The notes beneath the pieces are model-generated. The model did no database searches and was not told the origin of the DNA. It saw nothing but the letters and a program-made list of their open reading frames with translations. The position numbers and the translations under genes are program-made. Shown piece by piece: positions 8,879 to 16,637 of a stretch of 64,000 nucleotides of DNA; the stretch's first letter is position 1, and every line of letters starts with the position of its first letter. Source of the DNA: Pontiellaceae bacterium B1224 (GTDB taxonomy: Bacteria > Verrucomicrobiota > Kiritimatiellia > Kiritimatiellales > Pontiellaceae); assembly GCA_029432815.1 (NCBI GenBank), contig JAROBA010000011.1:1-64000 (forward strand), given 5' to 3'.

Positions 8879-10366
8879 ATGATGATGAGCAAAAAGACTG
8901 CTTTAGGCGTTGCGCTGTTTTTAGTCGCGGTAGCGCATGCAAAAAAACCGAATATTATTTATCTGATGGCTGACGATCAGAGCAGCTATACCATGGGCTG
9001 TTACGGCAATGCGGATGTGCAGACGCCGAATCTTGACCGGCTTGCGGTCGACGGCATGGCGTTCGACAATCATTACGACACCACCGCCATCTGCATGGCC
9101 TCGCGGGCCACGGTGATGACCGGCATGTATGAATATAAGACCGGGTGCAATTTTGACCATGGCGAAATGATGACGGCTACCTGGGAAAAGTCGTATCCGA
9201 TCCTGTTGCGCGAAGCGGGCTATATGACCGCCTTTGCCGGTAAGTTCGGGTTTGAATTGCGCGATACGCCGGACGGACCGAAGCTTGAGCTTCCAGAGGA
9301 TGATTTCGACCGTTGGGGCGGCGGGCCGGGGCAGACGTCCTATAAAACAGCGCAGAATAAATCGATGGCGGCCTATGCCGAGAAATATCCGCATTCCACG
9401 CTTTCGTACGGGGCATTCGGACGCGACTTTATTGAGGAGGCGGTGAAAGCCGATAAGCCGTTTTGCCTTTCCATCAGTTTCAAGGCTCCGCACAGGCCCG
9501 TTCAGCCAGACCCGACGTTTAATGATGTTTATGCGGGAAAAACTTTTAAGAAGCCGGAAAACTATGGCCGCGAAAACGGCGAGCATTTTTCAAAGCAAAG
9601 CAAGCAGGATCGCCAGTACGACCGGTTTACATCGTGGGGCTACGCAAAAAAATACGACAAGGTAATGGCGAAATACCATCAGCAAATTTACGCCATTGAT
9701 GTCGCGGTCGGTATGATCCGCGAGGCGTTGGTGGAGCAGGGCGTGGCGGACAACACCGTCATTATCTACACCTCAGACAACGGATTTTTCTGCGGGTCGC
9801 ATGGCTATGGCTCCAAGGTGCTGCCCTACGAAGAAGCCACGCGTGTTCCAATGATTATCTATGATCCGCGGCATCCAGACTCTGGAAAAGAACGGCGCTC
9901 GGACGCGCTGACCGGAAATATTGATTTCGCGCCGACCATTCTGAAGCTCGCCGGACTTCCAATCCCTGGAAATATGGACGGAGCTGATTTGATGGAACTT
10001 TATGAAACGCCAGATGCTTCGATTCACGAATCGATTGCACTCGTGAATGTCTGGGGAAAAGCGCCCACACATGCGTTGGCCGTGGTGACGAAAGATATGA
10101 AATACATTCACTGGGGCTATGCGGCGGATGGCTTTGAGGTCACCGAGGAACTCTACCATTTAAACAAAGATCCGCTCGAGCTGACGAACCAATCCGGTAA
10201 TCCTGAATACAGTGCCGCCATCGAAAAGATGCGCAAGGCCTACGATAAGCATTTGGATCAGTGGAAGGCCGAGGCCGTCCCATACAATAACTATCAGGTC
10301 TTCGGGACCGTTTTCGATCGCAACACGCCCTGGGCGGATAAAGTGGAACTTTTGTCTGCTGAATAA
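8879..10366 (+). CDS. Secreted sulfatase (S1 family, CMASR motif)
   Basis: 495 residues; AAGGATCAC before the ATG at 8879. A signal peptide ([21 protein letters not shown]) is followed by [14 protein letters not shown] with the metal-binding Asp pair. Active-site signature [11 protein letters not shown] with the formylglycine Cys at residue 72: Ala replaces the usual Pro at the third position, a variant seen in some S1 subfamilies. Further markers are [16 protein letters not shown] and [13 protein letters not shown]. It is seven bases after the GH43 paralogue and ends the first operon. Near residue 361 the reading LPIPGN is encoded by an exact TTCCARNNNYTGGAA palindrome (9957-9971). Sulfatase assignment is firm; substrate unknown. 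Confidence 0.92.
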
Positions 10367-10387: not shown

Positions 10388-10430
10388 TTCCAAGGGTTGG
10401 AACTTTTTGTAATTTTTCCAATCATTGGAA
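10388..10430. repeat. Two TTCCARNNNYTGGAA palindromes between genes
   Basis: Exact copies at 10388-10402 (centre AGGGT) and 10416-10430 (centre ATCAT), 28 bases apart, in the gap after the sulfatase. They are members of a palindrome family spread over the window inside and between genes. The pair could form hairpins, but no T-run follows, so a terminator role is doubtful. Confidence 0.85.
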
Positions 10431-10499: not shown

Positions 10500-11093
10500 A
10501 TGTCTTCTTCCGACCATACTCGCTATTCGCTGCTGCAGCGCGCCCACGACACGGATGATGAAGAGGCGTGGAAACAATTTGTTCTTCATTACCGCCGCTT
10601 CATTGCGTTTATCCTGCGGCAGATCGGGGTGCGCGAAAATGATGTGGAGGATCTGACGCAACAGATCCTGCTGAACTTAACGCAGAAATTATCCACCTAC
10701 GATCGCAGCCGGTCGAGCTTTCGCACCTGGTTGGGGCACGTCATCCGTAATGCCGCCAAGATGCACTTTCGCCGGCAATCCAGCCGTCCGGTCGAAGTGT
10801 ATGAAACCCATTCCGATTTTTTGATTAACGGGATACTGCAGGAGTCGGATGTGGATCGGCTCATTTCAACCGAGTGGGAAGACTATATTGCCACGCAAGC
10901 GTTGGATCGCGTCCGGCAAACCTTTAAAGGCAAGGCGGTTGATGTTTTCGAGATGGGGCTGGAAGGATTATCCGCTCCGGAGATTGCTGAACAAACTGGC
11001 CTAACCGTCCCTTCGGTTTATAAGCTGCGAACCCGCGTGAAGCGAAAACTCTTTCTCGAAGTGAGGGCGCTGACGGAGGAGCTGGAAGGGTGA
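10500..11093 (+). CDS. ECF-type RNA polymerase sigma factor
   Basis: 197 residues from the ATG at 10500 (MSSSDHTRYSLL); the ribosome binding site is weak, and a start further upstream at 10467 is possible. Region 2 is seen in EAWKQFVLHYRRFIAFILRQ followed by VEDLTQQILLNL, and the FRTWLGHVIRNAAK segment follows. Region 4 is a helix-turn-helix near the C terminus: APEIAEQTGLTVPSVYKL. Such sigma factors redirect RNA polymerase to a small regulon. The stop overlaps the start of the kinase gene (GTGA at 11090-11093), so both proteins are translationally coupled. The pairing suggests that the kinase senses a signal and controls the sigma factor; the sugar-degradation genes nearby are possible targets, but this is inference. 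Confidence 0.85.
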   Translation: MSSSDHTRYSLLQRAHDTDDEEAWKQFVLHYRRFIAFILRQIGVRENDVEDLTQQILLNLTQKLSTYDRSRSSFRTWLGHVIRNAAKMHFRRQSSRPVEVYETHSDFLINGILQESDVDRLISTEWEDYIATQALDRVRQTFKGKAVDVFEMGLEGLSAPEIAEQTGLTVPSVYKLRTRVKRKLFLEVRALTEELEG

Positions 11094-13117
11094 GCTCGGA
11101 CTACCAACCGGATCGCCGGTTAAAGGGAATCTATTCCGCCGCGAATGCGCTGGGAGAGGTGGGCCTGGAATCGCTTTGCCCTTCGTTTGTTGAATTGTCC
11201 GAAAGTGACGATCGCTATCGTGATGACGAGGAGGTCGGGCGCGGGGCCTTGAAGCAGGTCTTCCGCACCTACGATGCGCATACGCATCGGTGGATTGCCA
11301 TGGCGCGTCTGCGGGAGGATCGCGGGGAAGATTTTTATGATCTGTTTATTCACGAAGCTTGGCTCGTTTCATCCCTGAGCCATCCCAATATTATCAAGGT
11401 TCACGACACGGGGGTGGATGCGGAAGGTCGGCCGTTTTTCACGATGGATCTGAAAAGCAATACCACGCTGGCCGATCTGGTTGAGGAGAGCGGGGCTGAG
11501 CTCAACACCTTGCTGCAGGTTTTTGAAAAGATTTGTGATGCCGTGGCCTATGCCCATTCGCGCGGGGTGCTTCATCTGGATCTGAAGCCGGATAATGTTC
11601 AGACCGATGCCTTTGGGGAGGTGCTCGTTTGCGACTGGGGCCTCGCCAAAGCGATGGATGAAATGGGCGAGAATGAGGACGAAGATTCATTCCTGATTCG
11701 TTCGCTGGGAGGAATGACCCTGTTGGGGCAAATCAAAGGCAGTCCTGGTTATATGGCGCCGGAGCAGGCCGATCCTGATCAACCAAAGGGTGTCGGGACG
11801 GATGTCTATGCCTTAGGCTGCATGCTCTATTTTCTGCTGACCGGGCAGGCACCTTATCAGGGCACCGCCGCCAAAATTCTTGAAGATACTGCCGCGTCCC
11901 GCGTGGTTTCCCCTCGGCTTAAATTTCCGAAACGGTACATCCCGGCCAGCCTCGATGCGGTGGTGATGAAGGCAATGGCCTTGAAGCCGGAAGATCGCTA
12001 TCAATCGGTCACGAATTTAAAGGCGGAGATTGATAAATATCTGGGGGGCTATGCCACCCGCGCGGAAGAGTCCGGCTTTTTCAAAGAGGCCCGGCTCTTT
12101 ATTGCCCGCAATCGGATTCCAACCCTGATCACGGTGAGTTCTTTCCTCGTTCTGAGTGTGATGGGTGTGCTTTTTATTCAGCATTTAAGCCGCCAGAAAC
12201 AGGCGACTGAACTGGAGCGGGGGCGGGCGGATCAGCTTGATTCAGAATATGCCGCCTATGTTGAAGAGACGCTGGATGGTCACAAAGAGTTGGCCGACAC
12301 ATTGGCCACCTCCGTACGCCGTTTGGTGGAGGTTTCGATTTTAGAACGTCCCATAGAAACGGTGGATCAGTGCCGTAAAATGGTCGAAGTGGCCTTGCAG
12401 CAGGATCCTGGAAACGCGGACGCGTATGGCGAGCATTTTGCATTGGATTGTCTGGTGCTGGATCACAGGGCAGCGCTGCAGCGGCCCGATAGTATTAAGA
12501 ATCGCTTACAGTACCCACGCTTTATCCGGTTTGTGGAGGCCTTTCCAGAATTTGATTTTTCACGTCAGAAAAGGCCTTCGATTGAAGCGTTAACGGACTA
12601 TTTCAAACAGGCCCGAATTCTGAATCCGGAGCACGTGTGGCATATGGAGCGCGTTTTGGCGTATGATTATGCGTCGCGGCGGGACAAGCGCGGCTATGCA
12701 CCTGCGGTTGAGGCCGTGCTGCAATATCAGCACGAGGGGCCTGACCATCTGAAACTTTCACACTACGCGCGTACCTCAGTGGTTTCTCTATGGTCGGATC
12801 GGGATGTGCGCCTGATCCTGTCCGGGTGGAACGGGCCATGTCTATTACGGTTTCTGCCCTTCCGATTTCTGGAACTGGATATTGCGGGAACGTTTCCATT
12901 GGCCGATCTGGCGGACCTTCCGATTGAGTCGCTCGATATAAGCCGATCGCCGCAGATTGAGCTGGGCAGATCGGTCAGCCTTCCGCAACTTCGCCGCCTC
13001 ATTGTCCAGCCCGGACAGTTTCCCGAAAACGAGTTGCGCAAAAAAATCCAATCCAATGAGCCCTATGAAATTGTTGAAGCCGCTCCCGATGCTATGAATG
13101 GCTACTCGGCGGAATAG
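11090..13117 (+). CDS. Membrane Ser/Thr protein kinase with relocated lysine
   Basis: 675 residues starting at GTG 11090, overlapping the sigma factor stop. Kinase domain at about residues 45-335: glycine loop GRGALKQV (50-57), Glu89 in helix C, catalytic loop HLDLKPDNV (Asp164, Lys166), DWG in place of DFG (Asp182), YMAPEQ and DVYALGCMLYFLLTG. The beta-3 lysine of the VAIK motif is absent: IAMARL has Ala72 there. A lysine sits inside the glycine loop instead (Lys55), the arrangement of eukaryotic WNK kinases, so activity is plausible. A membrane segment follows (about 346-365, LITVSSFLVLSVMGVLFI), then a coiled-coil-like linker and an extracytoplasmic region ending in leucine-rich-like strands (SLPQLRRLIV). 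A decayed copy of this tail lies at 14239-14376. Confidence 0.9.
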   Translation: MSSDYQPDRRLKGIYSAANALGEVGLESLCPSFVELSESDDRYRDDEEVGRGALKQVFRTYDAHTHRWIAMARLREDRGEDFYDLFIHEAWLVSSLSHPNIIKVHDTGVDAEGRPFFTMDLKSNTTLADLVEESGAELNTLLQVFEKICDAVAYAHSRGVLHLDLKPDNVQTDAFGEVLVCDWGLAKAMDEMGENEDEDSFLIRSLGGMTLLGQIKGSPGYMAPEQADPDQPKGVGTDVYALGCMLYFLLTGQAPYQGTAAKILEDTAASRVVSPRLKFPKRYIPASLDAVVMKAMALKPEDRYQSVTNLKAEIDKYLGGYATRAEESGFFKEARLFIARNRIPTLITVSSFLVLSVMGVLFIQHLSRQKQATELERGRADQLDSEYAAYVEETLDGHKELADTLATSVRRLVEVSILERPIETVDQCRKMVEVALQQDPGNADAYGEHFALDCLVLDHRAALQRPDSIKNRLQYPRFIRFVEAFPEFDFSRQKRPSIEALTDYFKQARILNPEHVWHMERVLAYDYASRRDKRGYAPAVEAVLQYQHEGPDHLKLSHYARTSVVSLWSDRDVRLILSGWNGPCLLRFLPFRFLELDIAGTFPLADLADLPIESLDISRSPQIELGRSVSLPQLRRLIVQPGQFPENELRKKIQSNEPYEIVEAAPDAMNGYSAE

Positions 13118-13182
13118 CGATTTATTTGCCACGAAAGAACACATAGAACGCAAAGGAAAATCCTATTCGAAAAAGGTAGAGC

Positions 13183-13429
13183 CGGGTTGTCCCAACCCGC
13201 CGCACGGTTGCGCGGCTTTGCGTGCGGGGGCAGGCGGGACGCCCGCGATACCGTTCACACCGCCGACCGATCCGCCGGGCGCCCGATGGGGCATCAGGCC
13301 TACAGCGTGCGGGATCACACACCATGTAGGCCGGGGCCCCGACCCGGCGCGCGTCCGCACCGCCCGCACGAACCGCACCCCGCACCGCCGACCGATCCAC
13401 CGGGCACCCGATGGGGCATCGGGCTTACA
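13183..13429. repeat. REP-like palindromes and direct repeats beside RAYT
   Basis: A GC-rich block. CGGGTTG-TCC-CAACCCG (13183-13199) is a perfect hairpin. Two 44-base direct copies at 13261-13304 and 13386-13429 differ at four positions, and each carries the CCCGATGGGGCATCGGG type of hairpin. An inverted relative, starting TGTAGGCCGGGGCCCCGAC, lies between them at about 13325. The second direct copy overlaps the 3' end of the transposase gene. These look like the REP sequences mobilised by the neighbouring RAYT. The gap before the block (about 13125-13160) holds a dispersed-repeat-like sequence (CCACGAAAGAACACATAGAA) and no gene. Confidence 0.7.
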
Positions 13430-13889
13430 TCTCGGACCCATCGAAACGATTGAACCGTTGGGCGTATGGCCAATCGTCGGGATGTTTAACCAGTCCTGCG
13501 CGAACCGGGTTCATGCGAATGTATTCCCATTTTTCCGACCGGCTTTCATCGCTTCGCAAAACATGGTCGAAGAATCCTGCCTGCCATTTGAATCGGCGCC
13601 GGCCCACCATGACCTTGAAGGCCTTGATCCATTGCCCAACCGTGGTTTTTGAGTCGGGCGTGATGGTAACGATCAAATGCTCGTGATCCGTCATCCGCGT
13701 GTAGCAATCCACATACACTCCATACCGTTCAGGCGATTCATCAGAAAAGTTCCGGGCATTTTCCATGGTTTCGGCATTATCAAGCAATCGAGCCCGCCCA
13801 TCCGTACACAGGGTTAGGTAATAGGCCGGTGCCGAATCGAAGATGCGATCCAACCGCCGTTGACGGCGAGGTTGTTGGGGATTAGACAT
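13425..13889 (-). CDS. REP-associated tyrosine transposase (RAYT, Y1/IS200-like)
   Basis: 154 residues from the ATG at 13889; a start at 13925 would add 12 residues, and neither has a clear ribosome binding site. The fold is that of the single-domain Y1 HUH transposases: the two-histidine motif reads DHEHL (His69, His71) and the catalytic tyrosine is Tyr123 in WEYIRMNPVRAGLV. GFFDHVLRSDES matches the RAYT pattern before the active tyrosine. Instead of the common MPNHVHLL the histidine motif has Glu between the histidines. Such enzymes nick and move REP palindromes as single-stranded DNA. Flanking GC-rich repeats on both sides support this. It sits between a complete kinase gene and a leftover kinase tail. 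Confidence 0.8.
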   Translation of the reverse strand: MSNPQQPRRQRRLDRIFDSAPAYYLTLCTDGRARLLDNAETMENARNFSDESPERYGVYVDCYTRMTDHEHLIVTITPDSKTTVGQWIKAFKVMVGRRRFKWQAGFFDHVLRSDESRSEKWEYIRMNPVRAGLVKHPDDWPYAQRFNRFDGSEM

Positions 13890-13938
13890 GGCGCGAATCG
13901 TATCGGCCAGCCCGTGGCCGTGCAATGCAATTCCCTAT

Positions 13939-14085: not shown

Positions 14086-14238
14086 CGTGGCGTTAGTGCG
14101 GTGCGACAGAGCGGACGGCTGGGGACAGCCTTCCCTACCTCGTGATTGAACGCAGGGTCAGAATAATTGCATGCAAAATGAGGAACGGTCCGAGCGCATT
14201 GAGAATACCAATATTTTGGATAATACCCCGTCGCCGAA

Positions 14239-14376
14239 CTTCCTCAGCTTCGCAGGTTGATCGTAAACGCCGGGCAGTTCAGTGAGTTCCAATTACGTGA
14301 AAAGATTCTATCCAATGCGCAGTTCGAGATCGTGACTGTCGGACCGGAAGTCCAGAAATCTATTTTCCCGGAATAG
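14239..14376 (+). pseudogene. Remnant of a second kinase C-terminal tail
   Basis: Translating 14239-14376 gives 45 residues and a stop (TAG 14374-14376) that align with the last 45 residues of the kinase ending at 13117: LPQLRRLIVNAGQF against LPQLRRLIVQPGQF, then QLREKILSNAQFEIV against ELRKKIQSNEPYEIV. There is a stop a few codons upstream in the same frame and no start, so it is dead. It shows that a second, diverged kinase gene once ended here, or that the kinase gene was partly duplicated, with the transposase and REP block now lying between the two tails. Nothing else is seen from 14377 to the next gene. Confidence 0.8.
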
Positions 14377-14542: not shown

Positions 14543-15958
14543 ATGGATAAAGGAATAATTAAATGTCCGCATTGCGGGAAAGAGTTCGCGATTGAGGATG
14601 CCGGGTACGCGGATATTCTGAAGCAGGTTCGTGATAGCGAATTCGAGCAGCAGTTGGATGAACGGCTTAAGCTGGCCGAGACGGATAAGAATAATGCGGT
14701 TGAGCTTGCCAGGGAAAAGGTCAGTAGCGAAATGCAAAAGGCTGCCGCGGCGAAGGACGCTACGATTCAAGAGCTAAAGGCGAAGCTGGATGCCGGAGTG
14801 GTCGAGCAAAAACTTGCGGTGACTCAGGCTCTCAGTATCGTGGAAAAAGAACGCGATGAGCTGGCCAATGCATTGAAGCAGGCGAAGCAGGACAACGAAG
14901 CTGCGGCGAAGCTGGCCGAGGCTAAGCTTTTGCAGGAGCTTCAGGAGACGGCTGCAAAGAAGGATGCGGAGATTCATAACCTACAGTCGAAGCTGGAGGC
15001 TAACGAAGTTGCGCAGAAGCTGGCGATCACGGAGGCCGTCAACGGGGTTGAGAAGGAACGCGACGAACTGAAGAACGGTCTTAAGCAGGCAGAGCTTGAA
15101 AAGCAACTCGCCGAGAAGTCGCTCAAAGATAAGTACGAGACGCAGATTAAAGATCGGGATGATGCCATTGAGCGTCTCCGGGATATGAAAGCCCGCCTGT
15201 CGACCAAGATGGTTGGTGAAACACTCGAACAGCATTGTGAGACCGAGTTTAACCGCATTCGGGCGACCGCATTTCCAAGAGCCTACTTCGAGAAGGACAA
15301 CGATGCCAGCTCGGGCAGCAAGGGCGACTACATTTTTCGTGATTTAGACGAAGCGGGCACAGAGATCGTTTCCGTCATGTTTGAAATGAAGAATGAAAAC
15401 GACACGACGGCTACGAAGAAAAAGAATGAAGATTTTCTGAAGGAGCTCGATAAGGATCGCGCAGAAAAAGGGTGCGAGTATGCAGTGCTGGTTTCCCTGC
15501 TGGAACCGGATAGTGAGCTCTACAACACGGGAATTGTTGATGTGTTTCACCGTTATCCCAAAATGTACGTGGTTCGTCCGCAGTTTTTTATTCCCATTAT
15601 TACGCTGTTACGGAATGCCGCGATGAACTCGCTTGAATACAAAGCCGAGCTTGCGCTGGTTAAAGCACAGAATGTTGATATCACAACCTTCGAAAGCGAC
15701 CTCGATAAATTCAAGACCGCATTCGGGAAAAACTACGATCTTGCATCCAGAAAGTTCCAAACGGCCATTGATGAGATCGATAAGTCAATCAATCATCTTC
15801 AGAAGACGAAAGATGCGCTAATTGGCACGGACCGGAACCTTCGTCTCGCAAACGACAAGGCGCAGAATGTTACGGTGAAAAAACTGACTCGCCGCAACCC
15901 TACGATGGCATCCATGTTTGAGAAATTAGAGGATAACGAACCTGCCGAGGGTGAATAG
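14543..15958 (+). CDS. DUF2130 family protein
   Basis: 471 residues. The N terminus is a half zinc ribbon ([14 protein letters not shown]). Residues about 30-230 are a long coiled coil rich in Lys, Glu and Ala containing two internally similar blocks ([19 protein letters not shown] and [19 protein letters not shown]). The C-terminal half is the DUF2130 domain: [54 protein letters not shown] and a PQFFIPII segment, with a nuclease-like D...EMK arrangement of acidic and lysine residues. There is no signal peptide, so it is cytosolic. The family's function is not established; the core suggests a PD-(D/E)XK-type fold. It stands alone in the accessory stretch between the transposase and the broken Fic gene. 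Confidence 0.85.
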
Positions 15959-16044: not shown

Positions 16045-16637
16045 GGTTTAAATTCGCTATAGCCTTCGTAGTAATAGCTGACATCAATGCCTTTCATGAA
16101 CAGGGCTCGGTCGTCCACTTTGTCTGTTAAGGCTTGTTTTAACAGGACTTTGATCTCGACGTCTTTGACGACACTGCGCTACATGGCAGAGAGGTATTCT
16201 TCTTTATTGACCTGGTTCCAATCCACCACCTGTCGGATCTCTTTTTTCAGGATTAAATCAAGCCAGATGCGGGTGGTTCGGCCGTTGCCTTCGCGGAAGG
16301 GGTGGGCAATGTTCATCTCGACATATTTTTCGATAATTTCATCAAAATCACTCTGGGGCAGGGCATCGATATGTTCCAGAGATGGCTCCAAATACATCAG
16401 CGGTGCGAATTGGAAATCACCCTTGGCCATATTCTCGGTACGAATTTTACCCGCAAAATCATAGATCTCATCAAATAGGTAGGCATGGATAAAGGCGAGT
16501 CCCTCAAAGGTGTCGACCTTAACTTTGGCGATTTCGCCCGAATCAAACATCTCTTTGGCTTTTTGCTTACTGAGCCGTTCCTCGGCTTTGGATAGCTCGA
16601 TTTGATCAGTGATATTTAATTTGTTGTCTAATATCAT
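16045..16637 (-). pseudogene. Fic family protein, interrupted by an in-frame stop
   Basis: The frame starts at the ATG at 16637 and encodes the complete Fic signature HPFREGNGRTTRIW (His112), which transfers AMP or a similar group to target proteins. It hits TAG at 16181-16179 after EEYLSAM. The same frame continues beyond the stop without a shift (RSVVKDVEIKVLL, then DKVDDRALFMKGIDVSYYYE) to about 16045, which is the normal C-terminal region of this family. A single change of GAG to TAG would explain it. The truncated product keeps the catalytic motif and may still be stable, but the gene looks inactivated. The exact end of the former gene is uncertain, as the frame stays open past 16045. 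Confidence 0.8.

What the first reader, a model, noticed from the sequence alone, without database searches (positions are those of the whole stretch)
10500..13117. Sigma factor fused in translation to a WNK-like bacterial kinase
The ECF sigma factor and a membrane kinase overlap by GTGA. The kinase lacks the VAIK lysine (IAMARL) but has a lysine in the glycine loop (GRGALKQV), as WNK kinases do (established for the eukaryotic family), while Glu89, Asp164 and Asp182 are kept. The extracytoplasmic tail might sense glycan or envelope state. A kinase-controlled sigma factor within a glycan-degradation region would be a new regulatory circuit.
Basis: partly seen in the sequence, partly recalled or inferred. 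Interest (0 to 1): 0.66.

Follow-up and report, generated by a model that had tools for sequence, protein, structure and literature searches.

The report
Bacterial kinases with a WNK-style lysine
A marine bacterium's sigma-factor gene overlaps the gene for a membrane kinase whose ATP-binding lysine has moved to a different strand, as in the animal and plant WNK kinases, and this turns out to be a large, consistent and apparently undescribed class of bacterial kinases rather than one odd gene.

Summary
An ECF sigma gene (10500-11093) overlaps by GTGA a 675-aa membrane kinase gene (11090-13117) whose glycine loop reads GRGALKQV and whose beta-3 strand reads IAMARL.

In 222 kinase domains gathered from related genomes, the Lys is at PKA-equivalent position 55 with Ala/Thr/Gly at 72 (126 sequences) or at 72 with Gly/Ala/Ser at 55 (96). 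None has both and none has neither. In the 126, Glu89, Asp164, Lys166, Asn169, Asp182 and Gly184 are invariant, and HRD has become HLD in 120: the pattern of a working enzyme.

Trees without the trait columns suggest about one origin, inside PknB-like kinases of Kiritimatiellota, Verrucomicrobiota, Lentisphaerota and Planctomycetota. The WNK resemblance is convergence, not membership. Many members sit beside an ECF sigma gene; sigma and kinase distances correlate at 0.91.

Kinase-linked sigma factors are already known, so the circuit type is not new. WNK-type chloride sensing is unlikely (Trp where WNK1 has Leu369). Glycan sensing by the tail is unsupported. No paper I could search describes this class. 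Activity and sigma phosphorylation are inferred, not shown.

The parts
10500..11093 (+). ECF sigma factor, 197 aa (ORF open from GTG 10467)
   Evidence: Pfam Sigma70_r2 6e-15 and Sigma70_r4_2 2e-6; TIGR02937 1.5e-19; keeps the acidic DxxD of region 2.2, NDVEDLTQQ
11090..13117 (+). membrane Hanks-type kinase, 675 aa, GTG start
   Evidence: Pkinase 2e-35; best solved relative PknB, E 5e-38; AF2 mean pLDDT 89.6
11090..11093 (+). GTGA overlap of sigma stop and kinase start
   Evidence: sequence; kinase start at the same offset in 16 of 24 loci examined
11252..11254 (+). codon AAG, Lys55, third Gly position of GxGxxG (PKA position 55)
   Evidence: 126/126 Lys in the class
11303..11305 (+). codon GCG, Ala72, the VAIK lysine position (PKA K72)
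   Evidence: Ala 124, Thr 1, Gly 1 of 126
11354..11356 (+). Glu89 (PKA E91, helix C)
   Evidence: 126/126
11576..11581 (+). Leu163-Asp164: HRD motif as HLD
   Evidence: Leu 120/126, Asp 126/126
11600..11602 (+). Gln171, position of PKA Leu173 (adenine-contacting spine residue)
   Evidence: mostly polar in the class (Gln 64, Asn 17, Arg 15, His 9 of 125), Met/Leu in 84 of 92 other kinases
11633..11644 (+). Asp182-Trp-Gly-Leu, metal-binding DFG motif as DWGL
   Evidence: DWG 126/126
12122..12178 (+). transmembrane helix, residues 345-363
   Evidence: hydropathy maximum 2.33; AF2 helix 342-376
12236..13078 (+). C-terminal domain, residues 383-663: long helix, TPR-like helices, LRR-like beta part
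   Evidence: AF2 pLDDT 95.2, pTM 0.91; no confident PDB match, best TPR proteins such as PilF at E 0.04

Best explanation
The pair is a one-cassette signalling unit. The kinase sits in the inner membrane with its catalytic domain in the cytoplasm and a TPR/LRR-like domain outside. It is a catalytically competent Ser/Thr kinase in which Lys55, at the start of beta-2, does the work of the missing beta-3 lysine: it contacts the ATP phosphates and pairs with Glu89, as Lys233 does in WNK1. A signal read by the outer domain, probably through a partner protein, alters the kinase, which phosphorylates or otherwise switches its own ECF sigma factor; the sigma factor then turns on local genes, plausibly including the neighbouring sulfated-glycan genes. 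Shown: gene order and overlap, the strict lysine swap across 222 kinases, conservation of every other catalytic residue, near-single origin, co-inheritance with the sigma gene, membrane architecture. Inferred: ATP binding through Lys55, phosphotransfer, the sigma factor as substrate, the signal and the regulon.
For: Strict exchange: Lys55 with Ala/Thr/Gly72 in 126, Lys72 with Gly/Ala/Ser55 in 96, none mixed. Glu89, His162, Asp164, Lys166, Asn169, Asp182, Trp183, Gly184 invariant in 126. The profile of residues 47-106 finds WNK1 and WNK3 as the best eukaryotic chains in the PDB, after PknA/PknB, and they lose that place when positions 55 and 72 are masked. AF2 puts Lys55 at the start of beta-2, Ala72 in beta-3, Glu89 in helix C. 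WNK1 itself is active with Lys233 in this place (PMC4718504; PMC1821047). Sigma link: 68 of 101 class members have a sigma hit within about 700 bp; the window genome has 14 ECF sigma factors, 7 of this family, and all 7 lie by kinases, 6 of them this class; Mantel r 0.91 for 67 pairs, 0 of 999 permutations as high. Sigma phosphorylation by an adjacent kinase is demonstrated for PknS-EcfK (PMC13147305).
Against: No biochemical data. The sigma factor keeps the acidic DxxD motif of region 2.2, so the worked-out ECF43 mechanism (phospho-Thr supplying missing charge) does not apply, and how phosphorylation would switch it is unknown. The class also includes short kinases without a sigma gene in the about 1.5 kb fetched on either side (e.g. 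L102, L111), so the lysine swap is not tied to sigma control. The Mantel test does not remove shared organism history.
Confidence: 0.62

Rival explanations
1. The class are pseudokinases: they bind the sigma factor (and perhaps ATP) but do not transfer phosphate, acting as a membrane-bound anti-sigma or scaffold.
For: Loss of the VAIK lysine and the HRD arginine; under the usual criterion any such kinase is called a pseudokinase (PMC12599244). No separate anti-sigma gene was seen beside the pair in the window. The conserved DxxD means the sigma factor could be active by default and need sequestration.
Against: Asp164, Lys166, Asn169, Asp182, Gly184 and Glu89 are invariant in 126 sequences, and every loss of Lys72 goes with a Lys at 55. 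Sequences under no catalytic selection would not keep this.
Confidence: 0.17
2. True kinases as above, but the main substrate is not the sigma factor; gene pairing reflects co-expression, and the sigma factor is controlled by binding or by another phosphoprotein.
For: Sigma factors outside ECF43 keep the acidic motif and their mode of control by kinases is unknown (PMC8999054); the window sigma keeps DxxD.
Against: All 7 sigma genes of this family in the genome lie by a kinase; sigma and kinase lineages track each other; PknS phosphorylates its neighbour EcfK directly (PMC13147305).
Confidence: 0.2
3. Bacterial members of the WNK family acquired from eukaryotes.
For: Same lysine position; WNK chains are the top eukaryotic hits of the N-lobe profile.
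Against: Whole-domain best relatives are bacterial PknB/PknA/StkP; the extra WNK score vanishes when positions 55 and 72 are masked; nearest relatives in the trees are canonical VAMK...HRD kinases of the same bacterial groups; HLD, DWG and the membrane architecture differ from WNK.
Confidence: 0.01

Closest known systems
WNK kinases (eukaryotic)
   Same: VAIK lysine lost and a lysine at the third glycine position of the glycine loop (WNK1 Lys233; PKA position 55); Glu of helix C, catalytic Asp and metal Asp kept
   Different: Independent origin among PknB-like bacterial kinases; Ala instead of Cys at 72; HLD instead of HRD; DWG instead of DLG, so the WNK1 chloride-site residue Leu369 is Trp; single TM helix and TPR/LRR-like domain
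CAK-chloro subfamily of small-molecule-like kinases (Kannan 2007, PMC1821047)
   Same: positive charge shifted from position 72 to 55
   Different: Arg not Lys at 55, Met at 72, helix C Glu lost to Phe; a different superfamily branch
PknB-like Hanks-type bacterial receptor kinases
   Same: fold, single TM helix, closest solved relatives
   Different: canonical Gly55/Lys72 and HRD in the PknA/PknB chains aligned here
ECF43 sigma - STPK pairs (EcfP/PknT, EcfK/PknS) and planctomycete STPK-linked groups ECF59, 61, 62, 217
   Same: ECF sigma gene beside a membrane Ser/Thr kinase gene
   Different: the window sigma keeps the acidic DxxD of region 2.2, unlike ECF43; group assignment among 59/61/62/217 not tested; lysine state of those kinases not described in what I read

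Membership tests
Hanks-type Ser/Thr kinase (Pfam PF00069) | significant match over the whole kinase domain | tested here: met
   E 2.1e-35, residues 43-305; AF2 and Foldseek match solved kinases
Hanks-type Ser/Thr kinase (Pfam PF00069) | catalytic Asp, metal Asp, helix C Glu, catalytic-loop Lys and Asn | tested here: met
   Asp164, Asp182, Glu89, Lys166, Asn169; each 126/126 in the class
Hanks-type Ser/Thr kinase (Pfam PF00069) | beta-3 VAIK lysine | tested here: not met
   Ala72; replaced by Lys55. Also not met by WNKs, which are accepted members
Hanks-type Ser/Thr kinase (Pfam PF00069) | phosphotransfer activity | not testable with these tools
   needs assay
WNK family | lysine at the third Gly position and none in beta-3 | tested here: met
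   profile position 9 (Lys55) falls at chain residue 40 of 4q2a, which is Lys233 if the construct starts at 194 as I recall
WNK family | common descent with eukaryotic WNKs | tested here: not met
   closest relatives are bacterial kinases; WNK preference disappears on masking two positions. No WNK sequence was put in the trees
WNK family | chloride site with Leu369 and Leu371 (DLGL) | tested here: not met
   Trp183 at the Leu369 position in 126/126, Leu185 in 108/126; L369F alone relieves chloride inhibition of WNK1 (PMC7606576)
Pseudokinase | loss of at least one of VAIK Lys, HRD Asp, DFG Asp without replacement | tested here: not met
   only the VAIK Lys is lost and it is replaced by an invariant Lys55
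ECF sigma factor | sigma2 and sigma4 domains only | tested here: met
   Sigma70_r2 and Sigma70_r4_2 over cut-off
ECF43 (phosphorylation-activated) | acidic DxxD of region 2.2 replaced by Ser/Thr | tested here: not met
   NDVEDLTQQ here and acidic motif in nearly all partners
STPK-linked ECF groups 59, 61, 62, 217 | match to the group profile | not tested
   group profiles not on hand

The most novel reading that the evidence does not exclude
A second, independent invention of an active protein kinase with the catalytic lysine moved to the glycine loop, forming a whole bacterial class, in which further changes (HLD, a polar residue at the adenine-contacting spine position 171) indicate a reworked ATP site with altered nucleotide preference or a new way of gating activity, used to switch dedicated sigma factors.
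Probability: 0.4. Interest if true: 0.8.

Novelty: new variant of a known kind. Interest (0 to 1): 0.68.

Why it matters
WNK has been called the only functional eukaryotic-type kinase family without the VAIK lysine (PMC1821047). A large bacterial class that made the same exchange on its own gives a natural replicate: it shows which other residues must change with the lysine (here HRD to HLD and position 171), and makes testable whether the exchange by itself creates new regulation such as anion sensing. It also warns that automated pseudokinase calls based on the missing lysine would wrongly label over a hundred of these genes. In Kiritimatiellota and relatives it defines a testable sigma-kinase system, part of it next to sulfated-glycan genes, in organisms whose regulation of polysaccharide breakdown is little known.

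Tried and rejected
(1) Arg73 (IAMAR) as substitute for the beta-3 lysine: rejected, variable in the class. (2) Alignment slip or sequencing error: rejected by 126 independent sequences and two canonical-to-swapped states aligned without gaps. (3) WNK membership: rejected. (4) WNK-type chloride sensing: Trp at the Leu369 position makes it unlikely; not excluded for a different site. (5) ECF43 mechanism: rejected, DxxD kept. (6) Glycan-binding tail: Pfam and Foldseek gave no carbohydrate-binding match. (7) Sulfatase linkage: suggestive only. Sulfatase domains lie 545 and 510 bp from two of the four closest units of the genome, where 3.6% of the genome lies within 500 bp of one; 17 of 49 ECF-linked class loci against 0 of 8 canonical loci have one within the flanks, Fisher p 0.09; the L005-like subclade has none in 8. 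(9) Wider tree (126 rows) needs 2 changes rather than 1 because one canonical row falls inside the class with weak support; its one-clade test did not finish in time. The first tree (121 rows) has the class as one side of a branch, SH-aLRT 94, below the tool's 95 mark. (10) Sampling bias: loci were drawn with class-member queries, so the 126:96 ratio says nothing about abundance; the absence of mixed states is the point.

Full report
What is there. The window (64 kb of contig C22 of a 5.38 Mb genome; closest named relatives Pontiellaceae) carries a sulfated-glycan gene cluster: five ORFs with Sulfatase matches, two GH43, one alpha-L-fucosidase, two alginate-lyase-like and one heparinase-like. 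Between a sulfatase (8879-10366) and a repeat-rich stretch lie an ECF sigma gene (10500-11093) and a kinase gene (11090-13117) that overlap by GTGA. The kinase has a normal kinase domain, closest among solved proteins to mycobacterial PknB, one transmembrane helix at about residues 345-363, and an outer part predicted with high confidence as a long helix, TPR-like helices and an LRR-like beta part (pLDDT 95, pTM 0.91).

The lysine exchange. GRGALKQV puts Lys55 where Hanks kinases have the third glycine (PKA G55); IAMARL puts Ala72 where they have the VAIK lysine (PKA K72). The window genome has nine further kinase loci; five (L002-L006) show the same exchange and four (L007-L010) are canonical. 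In a set of 121 kinase domains from GTDB genomes and a 145-genome sample of the phylum, and after adding 100 further matches of that sample by coordinate, the exchange is absolute: 126 sequences with Lys55 and Ala (124), Thr (1) or Gly (1) at 72, and 96 with Lys72 and Gly (80), Ala (10) or Ser (6) at 55. No sequence has both lysines or neither. All other catalytic residues are invariant in the 126. The class also replaces the HRD arginine by Leu in 120 of 126, and carries a mostly polar residue at 171, the PKA Leu173 position, where the other kinases have Met or Leu.

Origin. With the trait columns removed, the class is one side of a branch among 121 rows (SH-aLRT 94). A second tree with more canonical kinases needs two changes, and starred branches force only one. 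The canonical kinases nearest the class read GGMG...VAMK...HRD, so GGMK...VAMA...HLD can be reached in few steps; L161 and L181 have HLD with a normal lysine and may mark an order of events. Members come from Kiritimatiellota, Verrucomicrobiota, Lentisphaerota and Planctomycetota. A profile of residues 47-106 ranks WNK1 and WNK3 as the best eukaryotic chains of the whole PDB, right after PknA and PknB; with the two exchanged positions masked, CDK7 and CDPK chains come first. The likeness to WNK is thus in the exchange itself: convergence.

The sigma link. Of 101 class members in the first set, 68 have a sigma ORF within about 700 bp: 41 on the same strand directly upstream, others divergent or downstream. 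Some loci are cut by contig ends, so this is a lower bound. The genome of the window has 14 ECF sigma factors; 7 belong to this sigma family and all 7 lie beside a kinase, six of this class and one canonical. Distances among sigma factors and among kinases correlate at r 0.91 over 67 pairs, with 0 of 999 permutations as high; shared organism history contributes. The 4-base overlap is widespread. ECF control by adjacent Ser/Thr kinases is known: PknT-EcfP and PknS-EcfK (ECF43), and planctomycete groups 59, 61, 62 and 217 predicted from gene order (PMC8999054; PMC13147305). ECF43 sigma factors lack the acidic motif that binds RNA polymerase and gain charge by phosphorylation; this sigma factor keeps the motif, so its switch must work otherwise. 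Thr7 and Ser10 are S/T in 99% and 97% of partners, but they may be plain structural residues; no control set was tested.

Function. I commit to an active membrane kinase using Lys55 that switches its own sigma factor (0.62). Invariance of every other catalytic residue argues against a pseudokinase scaffold (0.17). A true kinase with another main substrate remains possible (0.2). Chloride sensing as in WNK1 needs small hydrophobic residues at the DLGL motif; L369F alone increases WNK1 autophosphorylation and activation (PMC7606576), and here that position is Trp in all 126. The tail shows no carbohydrate-binding fold. Proximity to sulfatases is suggestive, not proof of regulation.

Novelty. Nine full-text searches of an open library found no description of a bacterial class with this exchange. 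The 2007 microbial kinome paper names WNK as the only functional ePK family without K72 and a charge shift in CAK-chloro; the 2025 review of bacterial pseudokinases lists seven families, none matching. Subscription papers, including the 2025 atlas of bacterial Ser/Thr kinases, were not readable, so prior notice cannot be ruled out.

Noticed in passing
window 10388-10402, 10416-10430, 23470, 33466, 36941, 36973, 39229, 49787; genome-wide: The palindrome TTCCAANNNTTGGAA occurs 8 times in the window (0 expected in shuffles) and 1177 times in the genome against 0 for the reversed control. Within 115 phylum genomes it is abundant (hundreds to 1339) only in some members of the same class and near absent elsewhere, often in tandem at 22 or 31-32 bp spacing. 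Two copies lie just upstream of the sigma gene. A widely used operator or chromosome-organising site is possible; unexplained.
   Followed up: partly
window 14236-14374 (+): Remnant of a second kinase C-terminus (56% identical to residues 630-670), separated from the intact gene by a repeat-rich stretch (13180-13460) and a small transposase-like ORF (13425-13925, minus; resembles REP-associated transposases by eye, no Pfam hit).
   Followed up: no
kinase position 171 (window 11600-11602) and relatives: The adenine-contacting spine position (PKA Leu173) is mostly Gln/Asn/Arg/His in the Lys55 class and Met/Leu in other kinases; may alter nucleotide preference.
   Followed up: partly
L102, L104, L105, L107, L111-L113, L115-L121: A group of short kinases of the Lys55 class (GFGGMK, open frames of about 370-460 aa) without a sigma gene in the fetched flanks: the exchange is not tied to sigma control.
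   Followed up: no
L161, L181: Kinases with HLD but a normal VAIK lysine, possible intermediates.
   Followed up: no
window 16179-16637 (-): Fic/DOC-family protein near a DUF2130 protein (14543-15958).
   Followed up: no
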